Of a stretch of DNA of 64,000 nt, positions 4,702 to 51,662 are shown in pieces. Where the stretch lies: contig NZ_CP011393.1 of NCBI RefSeq assembly GCF_001644665.1, forward strand, positions 1,882,001 to 1,946,000. Direction: 5' to 3'. A program made the position numbers and the translations under genes. The number at the start of each line of letters is the position of its first letter. Position 1 is the stretch's first letter. The DNA comes from Fervidobacterium pennivorans. Lineage in GTDB: Bacteria; Thermotogota; Thermotogae; Thermotogales; Fervidobacteriaceae. Below the pieces are notes generated by a model, which made no database searches, had not been told where the DNA came from, and saw only the letters and a list, made by a program, of their open reading frames with translations.

Positions 4702-5658
4702 TTAGAAGTATTTCTTGGCAGCATGTTCGACAGCTATTGCACCGTCTGCTGCTGCAGTAACTATCTGCCTTAGGTTTTTGACCCTGATATCGCCAACCGC
4801 GTAGATACCCGGAACGTTTGTTTCCATGTTCTCATCAGTAATTATGTAACCATAGTCATTCATATCAACAAGACCTTTAAATATTTGGGTTTGTGGAACA
4901 AGTCCAACGTAGATAAATACTCCGTCAGCTTTTATAACCTGTTCCTCTTTTGTTTCGTTATTCACAATAACAACTTCTTCGACTTTGTTTGACCCTCTAA
5001 TTTCTTTCACAACGTGATTTGTTATTACCTTAATCTTTGGGTTGTTCAGAACCCTGTCCTGCAATACCTTTGCCGCTGTCAGGTATGGTAAGTTCTGAAC
5101 CATCGTAATGCTCTTTACTATTTTCGATAAGAAGTGCGACTCATCACATGCACTGTCCCCACCGCCAACTACAACAACATCCTTATCTTTGAACAAATAT
5201 CCATCACAAGCGGCACAATAAGTAACACCTCTACCTCTAAATTCTGCTTCACCAGGAACTCCGAGTTTCCTTGGTTCCGTTCCTGTTGCCAAAATAACAA
5301 CTCGTCCTTTGACTTTGTTACCATCGTCGAGTTCTACAACTTTGTAATCTCCATCCACGTAAACTTTCTGCGCGAATGCGTAATGGAACTCCGCTCCAAA
5401 ATGCTTTGCATGCTCTGCAAATTTTTGACCTAACGCTTGACCTTCGATGCTTATTTCACCGGGCCAGTTTTCTACAACATGCGTTTGTGTTACTGCTCCA
5501 CCTTCAAGTGCTTTTTCTATGACAAGTGCAGTTAAACCTGCTCTCCTAGCATATATAGCAGCCGTAAGACCTGCAGGTCCTCCACCTATTATTACAACAT
5601 CGTAGTAATCTTTTAAATTCGAGCCAAAACTACCAACTTCAAACTCAAATCCAGTCAT
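4702..5658 (-). CDS. trxB: Thioredoxin reductase
   Basis: 318-residue flavoprotein that passes electrons from NAD(P)H to thioredoxin-like proteins. The FAD site is VVIIGGGPAGLTAAIYARRAGL, the redox centre is CAACDG, the pyridine nucleotide site is VVVGGGDSACDE and the C-terminal FAD motif is GIYAVGDIR. The HRRxxxR stretch that binds the NADPH phosphate in classical enzymes is replaced by MVQNLPYLTAAK, so NADH use is plausible. GGAGGGATTAGG precedes the ATG. Downstream is the glutaredoxin gene; upstream, after a terminator, is the disulfide oxidoreductase, another probable substrate. Confidence 0.95.
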   Translation of the reverse strand: MTGFEFEVGSFGSNLKDYYDVVIIGGGPAGLTAAIYARRAGLTALVIEKALEGGAVTQTHVVENWPGEISIEGQALGQKFAEHAKHFGAEFHYAFAQKVYVDGDYKVVELDDGNKVKGRVVILATGTEPRKLGVPGEAEFRGRGVTYCAACDGYLFKDKDVVVVGGGDSACDESHFLSKIVKSITMVQNLPYLTAAKVLQDRVLNNPKIKVITNHVVKEIRGSNKVEEVVIVNNETKEEQVIKADGVFIYVGLVPQTQIFKGLVDMNDYGYIITDENMETNVPGIYAVGDIRVKNLRQIVTAAADGAIAVEHAAKKYF

Positions 5659-46759: not shown

Positions 46760-48049
46760 CTAGACAACTTCAAAAGTTTCTAAAGTCCCGCTTAAAGAAC
46801 TTACGTACGCATTCAAATCAAAATATCCATGTCCGGAAAGTGTGAAGACAATTGTCTTTTTCTCATTCTTTTTCGCTTCCTTAATCACATATGCTATCGC
46901 GTGTGCTGATTCGGGTGCTGGAACAATTCCCTCCACTTTTGCAAAGAGTTTTCCGGCTTCGAAGACCTCATCCTGACTGACAGCTGCAGCTGATATCAGT
47001 TTCTCGTAGAGTAACTTTGAAACAATTGGAGCTGCCCCGTGGTATCTTAATCCACCTGCGTGAATTGATGGCGGAACAAAATCTTTGCCAAGTGTGTACA
47101 TTTTCATCATCGGTGTCAAACCTGCGCTATCTCCAAAGTCATATCGGTACTCGCCTTTAGTCAGAGATGGACAACTCTCGGGTTCCACCGCAATAATTTT
47201 TATATGTTTCCCCTCAAGAATATCAGGAATGAAAGGCAGTATTGTCCCACCGAAGTTGGAACCTCCACCGTGGCATGCAACAATCATATCTGGTATGATT
47301 CCTAACTTTTTTAATTGTTCCTTCAGCTCAAGTCCAATTATCGTTTGGTGTAGCAATACGTGGTTCAAAACACTTCCAAGTGCATACTTTGCACCCTGTT
47401 CTTTAAAGACAGTTTCAATAGCTTCTGAAATCGCTATACCAAGCGTTCCAGGATGCTCTTCATCGAACGTCTGACCAAATTGTGTTAACTTGCTCGGACT
47501 TGGGACAACGTTACCGTTGAATATATTCATGAGTACCTTTCTGAAAGGTTTTTGATTATAGCTAATTTTTACCATGAAGACTCGAACTTCCAAACCAAAC
47601 TTCGCTCCTGCATACGAAAGTGCACTCCCCCATTGACCTGCACCCGTTTCAGTTACCAAAATTCTTGTCCCTGAGATTTTGTTGTAGTAAGCCTGTGCAA
47701 GTGCAGTATTCACCTTGTGACTACCAGTAGGGCTGACCCCTTCGTATTTGTAATAAATCCGTGTACGCGTTCCAAGGTATTCTTCCAGAAAGTTTGCTCG
47801 GATAAGTGGGGTGGGTCTGTAAACTGCGTATTCTTTCAAAACAGGTTCCGGAATAGGGATGAATCTTTTGTCACTTATCTCTTGTTCAAGCAATGGTTCC
47901 GGGAATATGCTGAGCAACTTCTCAGGTTTCATAGGTTGCCCCGTTTCAGGGTCAAGTGGTAAGTCCAATTTGAATGGTAAATCTGCAAGCACGTTGTAAT
48001 AACTTCTTGGCATTTCCTCAGGCTTCAAGTACACTACTTCCCTGAGCAT
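46760..48049 (-). CDS. trpB: Tryptophan synthase beta chain, TrpB2 type
   Basis: 429-residue PLP enzyme. The lysine site is SPTGSHKVNTALAQAYY and the phosphate-binding loop CHGGGSNFGG. The N-terminal addition and the length place it in the TrpB2 group (COG1350), which acts without a strong TrpA complex and condenses serine with indole. No trpA or other trp gene is adjacent, supporting a stand-alone indole-salvage role. GAGGAGGGGTTAGT precedes the ATG. Confidence 0.92.
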   Translation of the reverse strand: MLREVVYLKPEEMPRSYYNVLADLPFKLDLPLDPETGQPMKPEKLLSIFPEPLLEQEISDKRFIPIPEPVLKEYAVYRPTPLIRANFLEEYLGTRTRIYYKYEGVSPTGSHKVNTALAQAYYNKISGTRILVTETGAGQWGSALSYAGAKFGLEVRVFMVKISYNQKPFRKVLMNIFNGNVVPSPSKLTQFGQTFDEEHPGTLGIAISEAIETVFKEQGAKYALGSVLNHVLLHQTIIGLELKEQLKKLGIIPDMIVACHGGGSNFGGTILPFIPDILEGKHIKIIAVEPESCPSLTKGEYRYDFGDSAGLTPMMKMYTLGKDFVPPSIHAGGLRYHGAAPIVSKLLYEKLISAAAVSQDEVFEAGKLFAKVEGIVPAPESAHAIAYVIKEAKKNEKKTIVFTLSGHGYFDLNAYVSSLSGTLETFEVV

Positions 48050-48194
48050 ACTAACCCCTCCTCGTATAATAAGTTCGGTAAAAATTAAAATTGGTCTTTG
48101 AAAATTGAATGCATATTTTTTAACACCTCTGGTAAAATAGTTTCAGGTTGCCCCTCCTTGAGACTTTGTTCTCTTAAATAAGATTGCCTAACTA

Positions 48195-48269
48195 GAGTAC
48201 AGCTTTTTACTTGCCGGAAAATGTTTTGCCTCGTTTTCTTATGTACCGCGAGGTTGTAAGGCTGTACTC
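48195..48269 (+). ncRNA. Candidate IS110 bridge RNA domain
   Basis: Perfect 9-bp outer stem GAGTACAGC (48195-48203) with GCTGTACTC (48261-48269), enclosing an inner stem CCTCG (48229-48233) with CGAGG (48249-48253) and internal loops. A smaller hairpin (GAGA/TCTC) lies upstream near 48160-48175. Position just before the transposase start is where IS110 elements encode the guide RNA that pairs with donor and target DNA. RNA boundaries are not known. Confidence 0.6.
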
Positions 48270-48287
48270 AATCCGGAGGTGATTCCT

Positions 48288-49436
48288 TTGGCTATTTTAG
48301 CTATTGATGTCTCAAAGAACTATCTTTCTTTCTTTTCTGATTTCATCGGTAGTGGGACTGTTGAGAACTCTCCTCAAGGTATTGTTGAACTTTTTAACAA
48401 AGCTTTTGCTTCTTCTTCCGATTTTTCTCTTGTCCTTGAATCAACTGGTGTTTTTTCTTTTAATGTCGCTAACTTCTTCTTTCAAAACAACGTACCTGTC
48501 TTTTGGGTTAAAACTGATAACATTAAGCTCTATCGCAAAATTCTCAATCGTCCTAAAACTGACAAAATCGATGCTGAACTTATTTTCTCTATCGCTTCTA
48601 AATTTCCTGAGTCTTTAGTCCCTTTTGTCAATAACTCATATATCATCTCTGAGCTTCGTAATCTCACCAGACTTTATTTAAAGTTCAACGAAGATATCGC
48701 TCGATTGAAACTTAGGCTCTATTCGTATGTTTCTCTTTATTTCCCTAAACTTGACTTTAAACTAAATAAGACTTTCGAATGCCTGCTTAAAGATTATACA
48801 ATCGAAGAAATCGCAAACATGCCAATTGAAGAGTTATTTGAATATATTGCGAAAATTTCCAGACACAATGTCTCTTCACAAGTCTTAGCAGAAAAACTCC
48901 AAACTCTTGCTAAAGATGCCTTGAGGTTGTCTGTTAATCCTTCAAACACTCTGAGAATATCTATTGTTTCCACTATCGATTTGATACAGCACTATGAAAA
49001 ACAAATCGAACTAGTAAAGAAAGAAATAAGTAAATTACTTAAAGTAATTTCGAACACACTAACAACAGTCAAAGGGATAGGAGAAATAACTGCAGCTGGA
49101 ATTATAGCCGAAATAGGAGACATCAATCGTTTCGAAAAAGCCTCAGCGTTAGCATCATACGCAGGGCTTGTATGGACAATCAATCAAAGTGGAAATTACA
49201 AATCAGAAAACAACCAACTAACGAAAAAAGGGAACAAGTATCTAAGAACATACCTAGTAATGGCAGCGAACGGAGTAAAGACATACGATCCTGTATACAA
49301 AGAATATTATCGCAAAAAGTACGCAGAAGCAACAACACACAAACACATGAGAGCGCTAATATTAACTGCAAGGAAATTAGTAAATTTAGTGTATTATTTA
49401 CTAAAGAACAACGTACCGTATGTACCGATGAAATAG
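48288..49436 (+). CDS. IS110-family transposase
   Basis: 382-residue recombinase. The N-terminal RuvC-like DEDD domain shows AIDVSK, LESTGVFS and PKTDKIDAELIF; the C-terminal transposase_20 domain has TTVKGIGEITAAGIIAEIGD with the later serine-containing helix (LASYAGLVWTINQSGNYKSE). Starts at TTG 48288, because GGAGG lies 7 nt upstream. The first 500 bp are T-rich on the coding strand and the rest A-rich. The frame is intact, so the element may be active. Confidence 0.93.
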   Translation: MAILAIDVSKNYLSFFSDFIGSGTVENSPQGIVELFNKAFASSSDFSLVLESTGVFSFNVANFFFQNNVPVFWVKTDNIKLYRKILNRPKTDKIDAELIFSIASKFPESLVPFVNNSYIISELRNLTRLYLKFNEDIARLKLRLYSYVSLYFPKLDFKLNKTFECLLKDYTIEEIANMPIEELFEYIAKISRHNVSSQVLAEKLQTLAKDALRLSVNPSNTLRISIVSTIDLIQHYEKQIELVKKEISKLLKVISNTLTTVKGIGEITAAGIIAEIGDINRFEKASALASYAGLVWTINQSGNYKSENNQLTKKGNKYLRTYLVMAANGVKTYDPVYKEYYRKKYAEATTHKHMRALILTARKLVNLVYYLLKNNVPYVPMK

Positions 49437-49583
49437 GTAAAAAGAACGAAATCAAGTATGTGAAGAATGAAAGTGAAATATTAAGTTATTGAAAGTCAAA
49501 GTGTTGACTAGGTTTTTTATTTTTCTATTTTTTCTCCTCTTGACTTATTACCGGAAATCTCGTAGGTTGAATGTAGATTAAAT

Positions 49584-49617
49584 AAAAAAGCCGGGTACGA
49601 TTTTACACGTACCCGGC
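49584..49617 (-). terminator. Intrinsic terminator of the candidate ncRNA
   Basis: GCCGGGTACG-loop-CGTACCCGGC followed on the minus strand by TTTTTTATTT. Confidence 0.88.
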
Positions 49618-49805
49618 GATTGTCCACACTTTGTATGTCTTGTTGCTGCCTATTTTCTCCTTAGGTATGGCAACAACAAACTGGTGGACAACCACCGGTT
49701 GTCCACCACCAGAACTTTGTTGAATTCATTTGATAATGGTTGACAATCAAAGAAAATCTAATTCTACTTACCAAAACCACACACCGCCCGTTGCCTTTAG
49801 ATTTT
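49584..49805 (-). ncRNA. Candidate structured non-coding RNA of about 220 nt, unknown family
   Basis: Reading 5' to 3' on the minus strand: stem AAAATCTAA/TTAGATTTT (49805-49797 with 49761-49753) begins at the predicted start site; small stem TTTGAT/ATCAAA (49751-49746 with 49734-49729); perfect 12-bp stem TGGTGGACAACC/GGTTGTCCACCA with a 3-nt loop (49708-49682); 11-bp stem TTGTTGTTGCC/GGCAGCAACAA with one wobble and an 18-nt loop containing AAGGAG (49679-49640); terminator hairpin and T-run (49617-49584). No open frame of note. It is not 6S-like (no end-to-end rod) and not one of the common RNAs I know. Confidence 0.68.
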
Positions 49806-49810
49806 GAGGT

Positions 49811-49840
49811 ATTTTATCACAAATTTTTGGGAAAAGTCAA
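49811..49840 (-). promoter_or_regulatory. Promoter of the candidate ncRNA
   Basis: On the minus strand TTGACT (49840-49835), 18-bp spacer, TAAAAT (49816-49811). The start site 6-7 nt on coincides with the first base of the 5' stem. It lies after the stop of the small gene at 49877. Confidence 0.72.
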
Positions 49841-49876: not shown

Positions 49877-50176
49877 TCACTGCTGTGCTTTGCACTTCTC
49901 AATTAACTCAGTCATATATTTATCTATCATCTCTTCTACCTTTTCCTTCATTCCTGGCATTCCGAGAAATGAAGAATCAACGGTGATTATGATTCTGTCT
50001 TTTTGAACCTCTATCGTTCCTTTTCCAAAGATACTAACCTTTGCTTCAAAGATGTTCTCGCTTATTCTAGATATCTTCACGTTGAACTTAGAGATGTACG
50101 GTTCTGCTTCTTTCATAGCAACTTCGTAAAGCTTTTCCGGCTCGCAAGAATGCACGTATTCCTTTCTTATCGTCAT
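49877..50176 (-). CDS. Hypothetical protein, 99 residues
   Basis: Predicted alpha/beta protein: an N-terminal strand-helix (HSCEPEKLYEVAMKEAEPYI), a set of strands (FEAKVSIFGKGTIEVQKDRI) and a C-terminal helix (MKEKVEEMIDKYMTELIEK). The pattern loosely recalls the PHA-granule-associated small proteins, too weakly to name it. GGGGGGAAGAGGG precedes the ATG. It starts 14 bp after the B12/radical SAM gene and is probably co-transcribed with it. Confidence 0.7.
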   Translation of the reverse strand: MTIRKEYVHSCEPEKLYEVAMKEAEPYISKFNVKISRISENIFEAKVSIFGKGTIEVQKDRIIITVDSSFLGMPGMKEKVEEMIDKYMTELIEKCKAQQ

Positions 50177-50190
50177 CCCTCTTCCCCCCT

Positions 50191-51390
50191 TTAAAGTTCA
50201 TTTCCAACCCTGATACGCATATTTTGAACAGCCTTTTTGGCGAGTTGTTCTTGTTTCAACCAATATCCGTCAAGAATACCTTTTGAAGCAAGTTGTCCAA
50301 GAAATTTGTAATGGAAATCTTTCAAAACACCTGGTCCGACGTTTGAAAGAGGTGTGCCTGGGAGAGGCATAAAAGTGTGGGCATGAATCTTTGCATTGTA
50401 CTTCTTAACAATCTTCTCAATGAAATTGAACGTTTGTTCTACATCTTCTTTTGTTTCAAACGGAAATCCGAATATGAAATCTACTTTCGCATAAAAACCG
50501 TTGTCAGCTAATATCTCAAGCGCTTCTTCTACCTTTTCAACTGTATGTCCGCGACGTATAAGTTGTAGTATCCTATTGCTTCCACTTTGCGCACCTATAA
50601 CGATATAATCATGGTTTACGTATTTTTTGATAACTTTGACCATATCATCGGTAACGCTCTCAGGTCTGACATCAGATGGAAACGTTCCAAAGTATATCTC
50701 TTTCACACCTGTAGATTTTATCTTAAAGAGCAATTCGTCAACAATTTCTGGGTTGGGAGTAACTCCATTCTTGCTACCATACCCAAATGCATTTGGTGTA
50801 ATAAATCGTGCAATCGTTTTTCCATGCTTTACAGAAATTTTTTCGTATTCAACAATTTGTTCTATGCTTCTATGCCTAACTATCTTGCCAGCTAATCTTG
50901 GTGTTTGGCAGTATCCACAATCAAAAGGACATCCACGGGAAATCTCTATTGGCATGAAGAGCTTCTTCTTCTCACATATGGGAGGGTACTTATTCAAATC
51001 GACACGATTTTTCACTCCGTCGAAGATTCTATTCTCCGGTAATTCACCTTTCAAGAACTTGATGATATTTTCTTCCCCATCACCAACAAAAACATAATCA
51101 AAACCAAGCTCTAATAGTTCGAAAGGTAGTGCCGTTGCATGTGGACCACCAGCAATTACAGTGTAGCCGTGTTTTTTCAGTACCTTAAGTTCTTCTACTA
51201 CAGTATCCAAATCGAAGGTCATAAATGAAAAAGCAACTGCAGTATCCGATACCGGATACTGCAAGATATCAGCGACATTTTTAGTTTCAAAAATCTCCAT
51301 ATTTTCAATCTCACTAAGCACAGCAGAAACAAGCGCAGCAACACTGTAACGATTATGCTTGGTCGTTCTGAATATGAGCCTTTTAAACAT
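50191..51390 (-). CDS. B12-binding domain/radical SAM protein, MJ_1487-like
   Basis: About 399 residues. N-terminal cobalamin-binding-like Rossmann domain (VIAGGPHATALPFELLELGF and YVFVGDGEENI), then a radical SAM domain with RGCPFDCGYC. The end has LPGTPLSNVGPG. The family (TIGR04013 type) has no established reaction; B12-radical SAM enzymes usually methylate or rearrange carbon skeletons. Start at ATG 51390; the longer frame would start inside the upstream gene. Confidence 0.85.
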   Translation of the reverse strand: MFKRLIFRTTKHNRYSVAALVSAVLSEIENMEIFETKNVADILQYPVSDTAVAFSFMTFDLDTVVEELKVLKKHGYTVIAGGPHATALPFELLELGFDYVFVGDGEENIIKFLKGELPENRIFDGVKNRVDLNKYPPICEKKKLFMPIEISRGCPFDCGYCQTPRLAGKIVRHRSIEQIVEYEKISVKHGKTIARFITPNAFGYGSKNGVTPNPEIVDELLFKIKSTGVKEIYFGTFPSDVRPESVTDDMVKVIKKYVNHDYIVIGAQSGSNRILQLIRRGHTVEKVEEALEILADNGFYAKVDFIFGFPFETKEDVEQTFNFIEKIVKKYNAKIHAHTFMPLPGTPLSNVGPGVLKDFHYKFLGQLASKGILDGYWLKQEQLAKKAVQNMRIRVGNEL

Positions 51391-51422
51391 ACTTACCTTT
51401 TTAAGATTACCTCCAATTATCG

Positions 51423-51662
51423 TTAACCCCAAATCTTTTTTCTAACTTCAAGAGCAGGTTCAGCAAGCAGTAATGAATGACCGCTATCCATAAAGACTAT
51501 AGATTTACACTCTTTACCATAAGCTAAATTGACCATTTTTCCACCAAGCTGGCTACTCGCTCTTATACGCCTGGAGACTGTTGACGTAACAGGAACAACC
51601 GCAATAACCCTGTCTCTTACAATATACACGTTCTCGTTTATTCTTGCAACTGCTTCGGACAT
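51423..51662 (-). CDS. RemA/DUF370-family regulator
   Basis: 79-residue protein matching the RemA family: VIAVVPVTSTVSRRI, then GGKMVNLAYGKECKSIVFMD and SGHSLLLAEP. In Bacillus RemA is a DNA-binding activator of biofilm and osmoprotection genes that forms ring-like oligomers. Here it lies between ychF and the B12/radical SAM gene in one leftward run. Its targets in Thermotogae are unknown. Confidence 0.82.
   Translation of the reverse strand: MSEAVARINENVYIVRDRVIAVVPVTSTVSRRIRASSQLGGKMVNLAYGKECKSIVFMDSGHSLLLAEPALEVRKKIWG

What the first reader, a model, noticed from the sequence alone, without database searches (positions are those of the whole stretch)
49584..49840. A probable independent structured RNA of unknown family, with its own promoter and terminator
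On the minus strand a TTGACT-18-TAAAAT promoter is followed, exactly at the expected start site, by a 9-bp stem; then three more stems, including a perfect 12-bp one, and a strong intrinsic terminator. All the pieces of an autonomous RNA gene of about 220 nt are there, and no reading frame explains the structure. It does not look like 6S, SRP, RNase P, tmRNA or a T-box. An 18-nt loop exposes AAGGAG.
Basis: partly seen in the sequence, partly recalled or inferred. Interest (0 to 1): 0.75.

Follow-up and report, generated by a model that had tools for sequence, protein, structure and literature searches.

The report
Tryptophan attenuator of trpB2, IS-split
The 'unknown RNA' is the leader of a tryptophan-synthase gene (trpB2): a short peptide with three tryptophan codons and two rival hairpins that should switch the gene on when tryptophan runs out, here recently cut off from its gene by a jumping element.

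Summary
The promoter, hairpins and terminator are real, but this is not a frame-free RNA gene. A minus-strand leader ORF (49780-49661) reads ...WWWTTGGCPPVCCCHT*. The 'perfect 12-bp stem' is three tandem Trp codons plus the segment after them. That segment can instead pair over 15 bp with a sequence running into the terminator's 5' arm. This is the anatomy of ribosome-mediated trp attenuation.

The gene it controls is trpB2 (standalone tryptophan synthase beta; 46760-48049, minus). In the window an IS110 element (about 48063-49560) lies between them; a congener has the empty site, with the leader directly upstream of trpB2. In the order, 30 of 38 genomes with TrpB2 carry such a leader, including all 28 without trpA. 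The 8 without it (genus g7 and one other) have trpA and trpC. Three sequence versions share the same logic, and the antiterminator shows compensatory changes.

The window's genome lacks trpA, trpC and chorismate synthase, so TrpB2 is probably its only Trp-making step (indole salvage). Similar leaders precede trpB2 in Marinitoga and several other phyla. The mechanism is classical; this family is absent from Rfam, and I found no description of it in the papers I could search. Regulation itself is inferred, not measured.

The parts
49811..49840 (-). promoter: TTGACT-18-TAAAAT with TG before the -10
   Evidence: same hexamers and spacing in G004
49661..49780 (-). leader peptide ORF, GTG start (uncertain; alternative ATG at 49729), V/MVLVSRIRFSLIVNHYQMNSTKFWWWTTGGCPPVCCCHT*
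   Evidence: same frame open in G004; same C-terminal WWW(W)TTGGCPP in G008, G007, G006, G003, G013
49703..49711 (-). three tandem Trp codons (TGG TGG TGG), the sensing codons
   Evidence: 3-4 tandem Trp codons in all 30 leaders
49697..49708 (-). segment 1: pairs with segment 2 (12-bp 1:2 hairpin, -20.2 kcal/mol), overlaps the Trp codons
   Evidence: inner pairs lost in genera g3/g5
49684..49698 (-). segment 2: CCGGTGGTTGTCCAC, pairs either with segment 1 or with segment 3
49669..49679 (-). 5' arm of the third stem (Cys codons TGT TGT TGC of the leader)
49640..49650 (-). 3' arm of the third stem
49613..49627 (-). segment 3: GTGGACAATCGCCGG, 15-bp antiterminator with segment 2; last 5 nt are the base of the terminator 5' arm
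49590..49617 (-). terminator hairpin (10 bp, 8 GC; -19.9 kcal/mol)
49584..49589 (-). T-run of the terminator
48063..49560 (+). IS110-family element inserted between attenuator and trpB2
   Evidence: near-identical copies in the genome; empty site in G004
48279..49436 (+). IS110 transposase gene
   Evidence: PF01548/PF02371, NF033542
46760..48049 (-). trpB2, standalone tryptophan synthase beta, the gene controlled by the attenuator in relatives
   Evidence: NF009057, TIGR01415; PDB relatives named tryptophan synthase beta chain 1/2
48057..48062 (-). Shine-Dalgarno AGGAGG of trpB2, the IS110 target

Best explanation
A classical, ribosome-mediated tryptophan attenuator of trpB2. Transcription starts near 49804 and the leader peptide is translated. 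If charged tRNA-Trp is scarce, the ribosome stalls at the first Trp codon and covers segment 1. Segment 2 is then free to pair with segment 3; this sequesters the base of the terminator's 5' arm and polymerase reads into trpB2. If tRNA-Trp is charged, the ribosome moves on through segment 2 to the stop codon, which lies beyond it; segment 3 is left to pair with segment 4 and transcription ends at the T-run. Without translation the 1:2 hairpin forms and the terminator also wins. The product relieves the shortage by making Trp from indole and serine. Shown by sequence: ORF, Trp codons, the alternative helices, terminator, position before trpB2 in relatives, absence of the rest of the Trp pathway. 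Inferred: translation, stalling, antitermination, the indole substrate. In this genome an IS110 insertion has recently separated the intact attenuator from trpB2, so control here is probably lost or weakened.
For: Leader ORF with 3-4 tandem Trp codons upstream of trpB2 in 30 of 38 order genomes with TrpB2; within 450 nt upstream, shuffles give about 0. A strong hairpin with T-run follows in every case. Antiterminator overlaps the terminator's 5' arm in three sequence families: GGTTGTCC:GGACAACC/AATC, CAATTGTCC:GGACAATTG, CCCCGATTCG:CGAATCGGGG. Compensatory changes in the antiterminator: A1 88% of cells paired against 25-48% when slid, 8 double-change cells, 1 of 500 shuffles as high; A2 98% against 20-54%, 4 of 500. 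Terminator covaries too. All 28 TrpB2 genomes without TrpA have the leader; the 8 without it have TrpA and IGPS. Own genome lacks TrpA, IGPS and chorismate synthase. G030 has a WWW leader with the same logic before trpE. In G007 the leader heads an operon of a substrate-binding protein and trpB2.
Against: No expression data. The focal start codon is GTG with only a poor Shine-Dalgarno match (GGGCGGTGT, very close), and the downstream ATG is not conserved in G004. With segment 1 masked from the second Trp codon, the minimum-energy fold keeps the terminator beside a 10-bp part of the 2:3 helix. Full exclusion therefore needs stalling at the first Trp codon and kinetic control. In the window the IS lies between leader and gene, so the leader cannot control trpB2 simply.
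Confidence: 0.94

Rival explanations
1. An autonomous small RNA gene of unknown family acting in trans.
For: Own promoter and terminator, strong fold; in this genome no gene follows directly because of the IS.
Against: Leader ORF with Trp codons, alternative rather than single structure, and constant position before trpB2 in 30 genomes. The 5' '9-bp stem' is not conserved. The terminated leader could still have trans effects, as shown for other attenuator RNAs (own knowledge); not tested.
Confidence: 0.03
2. The bridge RNA of the adjacent IS110 element.
For: Lies 23 nt from an IS110 end; IS110 elements carry a structured bridge RNA (own knowledge).
Against: It is outside the element: the other copies match only up to 49560-49563. 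It is present in congeners without the IS. The IS's own non-coding end, 48063-48278, is the likely bridge RNA site.
Confidence: 0.005
3. A Trp-responsive leader of another mechanism: T-box, TRAP-like protein attenuation, or a riboswitch; the tandem Trp codons are incidental.
For: Terminator and antiterminator are shared by those mechanisms.
Against: No T-box or any Rfam match. Three unrelated sequence versions share only the Trp codons and the alternative-pairing logic, not an aptamer.
Confidence: 0.02

Closest known systems
E. coli trp operon attenuator (trpL; Rfam RF00513 Trp_leader)
   Same: Leader peptide with tandem Trp codons, 1:2, 2:3 and 3:4 alternative pairings, intrinsic terminator, Trp biosynthetic gene downstream.
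   Different: No sequence match to RF00513. Controls a standalone trpB2. Leader stop lies beyond segment 2, so the translating ribosome crosses segment 2 instead of stopping between 1 and 2 (E. coli layout from own knowledge).
Classical trp attenuators of Actinobacteria (Seliverstov et al. 2005, PMC1262725)
   Same: Double or triple UGG codons, GC-rich terminator, antiterminator; also one upstream of a trpB2A operon in Corynebacterium diphtheriae.
   Different: Different phylum, different sequence, solitary gene. Whether that 'trpB2' is the TIGR01415 type was not checked.
TrpB2 of Thermotoga maritima (Hettwer and Sterner 2002, as cited in PMC1854888 and PMC11917138)
   Same: Same protein family; trpB2 of the Thermotoga-like genus g7 is about 71% identical to the focal one.
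   Different: In that genus trpB2 has no attenuator and a complete trp pathway is present.

Membership tests
classical ribosome-mediated trp attenuator | short leader ORF with tandem Trp codons | tested here: met
   WWW in the window; 30 of 38 order genomes with TrpB2
classical ribosome-mediated trp attenuator | intrinsic terminator before the structural gene | tested here: met
classical ribosome-mediated trp attenuator | antiterminator mutually exclusive with the terminator and conserved | tested here: met
   15 bp, shares 5 nt with the terminator arm; covariation
classical ribosome-mediated trp attenuator | segment 1 overlaps the Trp codons and pairs with segment 2 | tested here: met
   12 bp in the window; core kept, inner pairs lost in g3/g5
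classical ribosome-mediated trp attenuator | leader ORF has a ribosome binding site | tested here: inconclusive
   good in many relatives (AGAGGTG, AGGAGG), poor in the window
classical ribosome-mediated trp attenuator | a Trp-related gene directly downstream | tested here: met
   trpB2 in relatives, directly or as second gene (G007); in the window displaced by IS110
classical ribosome-mediated trp attenuator | read-through depends on tRNA-Trp charging | not testable with these tools
   needs expression data
Rfam RF00513 Trp_leader | score above the family cut-off | tested here: not met
   no match at gathering or at E<=10
T-box | T-box covariance model match | tested here: not met
autonomous non-coding RNA | no coding function explains the structure | tested here: not met
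   leader ORF
IS110 bridge RNA | encoded inside the element | tested here: not met
   element ends at 49560

The most novel reading that the evidence does not exclude
Trp-codon attenuators dedicated to the standalone trpB2 gene are a widespread, independently re-evolved way of controlling indole salvage, found in Thermotogota and also in Bacteroidota, Ignavibacteriota and Deltaproteobacteria. This makes TrpB2 in vivo a Trp-starvation enzyme and marks co-attenuated genes (the substrate-binding protein in G007) as candidate Trp or indole importers.
Probability: 0.5. Interest if true: 0.6.

Novelty: new member of a known kind. Interest (0 to 1): 0.5.

Why it matters
The physiological role of TrpB2, the 'extra' tryptophan synthase beta subunit, has been open. 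A conserved Trp-tRNA-sensing switch in front of it, in organisms that lack the rest of the pathway, says the cell uses it to make tryptophan, most likely from scavenged indole, and makes that directly testable. It extends leader-peptide attenuation in thermophiles to a solitary gene, for which attenuation had been thought superfluous (PMC2395257). The window also catches an attenuator being cut off from its gene by an insertion element.

Tried and rejected
Rfam at gathering and at E<=10: no match. IS110 bridge RNA: rejected on element borders. First pass over minus-strand loci read the wrong strand, corrected. My automatic state folding picked a wrong U-run in five genomes (G013, G019, G010, G022, G036); those were checked by eye instead. 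Other Trp attenuators in the own genome: 38 TGGTGGTGG sites, no clear excess over the control pattern (32); none of the 34 other stretches looked like a leader before a terminator. trpE upstream regions of G002, G013, G025 and G027 showed no convincing leader. A promoter inside the IS facing trpB2: none at the scan threshold. No paper describing this attenuator was found in the held library, which lacks most subscription papers.

Full report
What is in the sequence. The minus strand of 49584-49840 holds a TTGACT-18-TAAAAT promoter, three stable hairpins and an intrinsic terminator. The fold is much better than shuffles (z = -6.1). From GTG 49780 to TAA 49661 the strand encodes VVLVSRIRFSLIVNHYQMNSTKFWWWTTGGCPPVCCCHT*. 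The frame is open in the congener G004 (MILVSKFRFSLNANQYQINSTNSWWWTTGGCPPVCCCHT*). Before the Trp codons the peptide varies freely (most changes alter the residue). From the Trp codons on the DNA is nearly fixed, as expected if codons and pairing matter and the peptide does not. The start codon is uncertain.

Alternative structures. The '12-bp stem' is segment 1 (49708-49697, overlapping the Trp codons) with segment 2 (49693-49682). Segment 2, extended to CCGGTGGTTGTCCAC (49698-49684), can instead pair over 15 bp, two of them G-U, with GTGGACAATCGCCGG (49627-49613). The last five bases of that segment are the base of the terminator's 5' arm (49617-49608). Energies are of the same order: 1:2 -20.2, 2:3 -23.4 (loop left open), 3:4 -19.9 kcal/mol. 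A ribosome stalled at the first Trp codon leaves segment 2 free; one that reads on to the stop codon covers it. A caveat: with masking from the second Trp codon, equilibrium folding of the focal sequence shows a 10-bp 2:3 helix beside an intact terminator, so the switch must be kinetic and depend on early stalling.

Relatives. A DNA search of 61 genomes found the element in seven. A TrpB2 search of the order (45 genomes) with reading of the upstream regions found a leader ORF with three or four tandem Trp codons, followed by a terminator, upstream of trpB2 in 30 of 38 genomes with this TrpB2. In one of them, G007, a substrate-binding protein gene lies between leader and trpB2. The eight without it are seven of genus g7 and G025. 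Those eight have trpA and IGPS; of the 30 with the leader only G013 and G030 do. These genomes are related, so this is a strong pattern but not 38 independent events. Three sequence versions exist: WWW(W)TTGGCPP, WWWxxGxCPP and WWW(C/Y)CP(D/N)S or WWWxSPPI. They share no overall sequence, only Trp codons, segment 2, segment 3 and terminator. Pair counts support the antiterminator: A1 88% paired (25-48% when slid), 8 double-change cells, 1 of 500 shuffles as high; A2 98% (20-54%), 4 of 500. They support the terminator too. The inner pairs of the 1:2 stem are lost in genera g3 and g5 while the antiterminator core is kept. The alignments were built from spliced segments (spacer left out), and the helices were defined from these sequences.

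The gene. The 429-aa protein at 46760-48049 is TrpB2 (NF009057, TIGR01415; PDB relatives). The genome, 99.98% complete, lacks trpA, IGPS (only sub-threshold matches) and chorismate synthase. TrpB2 is therefore probably its only Trp-forming step, from indole and serine. That chemistry is from knowledge of the family, not tested here. In G007 the leader is followed by a Peripla_BP_6 substrate-binding protein and, 20 bp on, trpB2: a candidate Trp or indole importer. In G030 a second WWW leader with the same logic precedes trpE.

The insertion. An IS110 element, about 48063-49560, separates leader and trpB2. Near-identical copies occur at six further places; one is only partly readable because the stretch is masked. 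In G004 and G008 the leader's terminator is followed directly by the trpB2 Shine-Dalgarno sequence. No promoter towards trpB2 was seen inside the IS end, so how trpB2 is now expressed is unknown. The leader remains intact, and the insertion is probably recent, since the copies are 99.9-100% identical.

Beyond the order. Among the best other TrpB2 loci, Marinitoga (L050) has a closely similar leader (WWWTPGGC). Leaders with WWW in a short ORF precede trpB2 in Flavobacteriales, Ignavibacteriae, Deltaproteobacteria, Melioribacteraceae, Bacteroidetes and Mesonia loci: 6 of 73 by a strict filter, 0.01 expected from shuffles. Their antiterminators were not examined.

Known or new. The mechanism is the classical one. 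Attenuators of this kind are described in proteobacteria and Actinobacteria (PMC3766115, PMC1262725). PMC2395257 argued that attenuation is superfluous for detached trp genes. I found no description of this one in the held library, and Rfam has no model that matches. I file it as a new member of a known kind. The identity of the organism as Fervidobacterium rests on my recollection of the genome sizes of two congeners, not on a test.

Noticed in passing
window 48057-48063 and IS110 copies L002-L004, L006, L007: All six readable copies of this IS110 element sit at AGGAGG or AGGGGTGG, and five of the six are clearly just upstream of a start codon, leaving the gene's Shine-Dalgarno intact. The element seems to target Shine-Dalgarno sequences. 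The AGGAGG side is target, not IS, because one copy differs there.
   Followed up: partly
window 48063-48278, +: Non-coding left end of the IS110 folds strongly (-56.8 kcal/mol for 48051-48300) and holds CCCCTCCT, the same letters as the target strand: a likely bridge RNA with its target guide.
   Followed up: partly
L138 2042-3205 (G007): LivJ-like substrate-binding protein between the Trp attenuator and trpB2: candidate Trp or indole importer.
   Followed up: partly
L148 about 5000-5210 (G030): Second Trp attenuator with leader ...NWWWLWGMPSL... directly upstream of trpE in the same order.
   Followed up: partly
L054, L058, L064, L068, L084, L097: WWW leader ORFs upstream of trpB2 in Bacteroidota, Ignavibacteriae and Deltaproteobacteria, with terminator-like hairpins in several.
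   Followed up: no
window 49877-50176, -: Small PHA_gran_rgn-like protein (below cut-off), next to a radical SAM/B12-binding protein gene (50191-51432) and conserved beside the attenuator in G004, G008 and G007.
   Followed up: no
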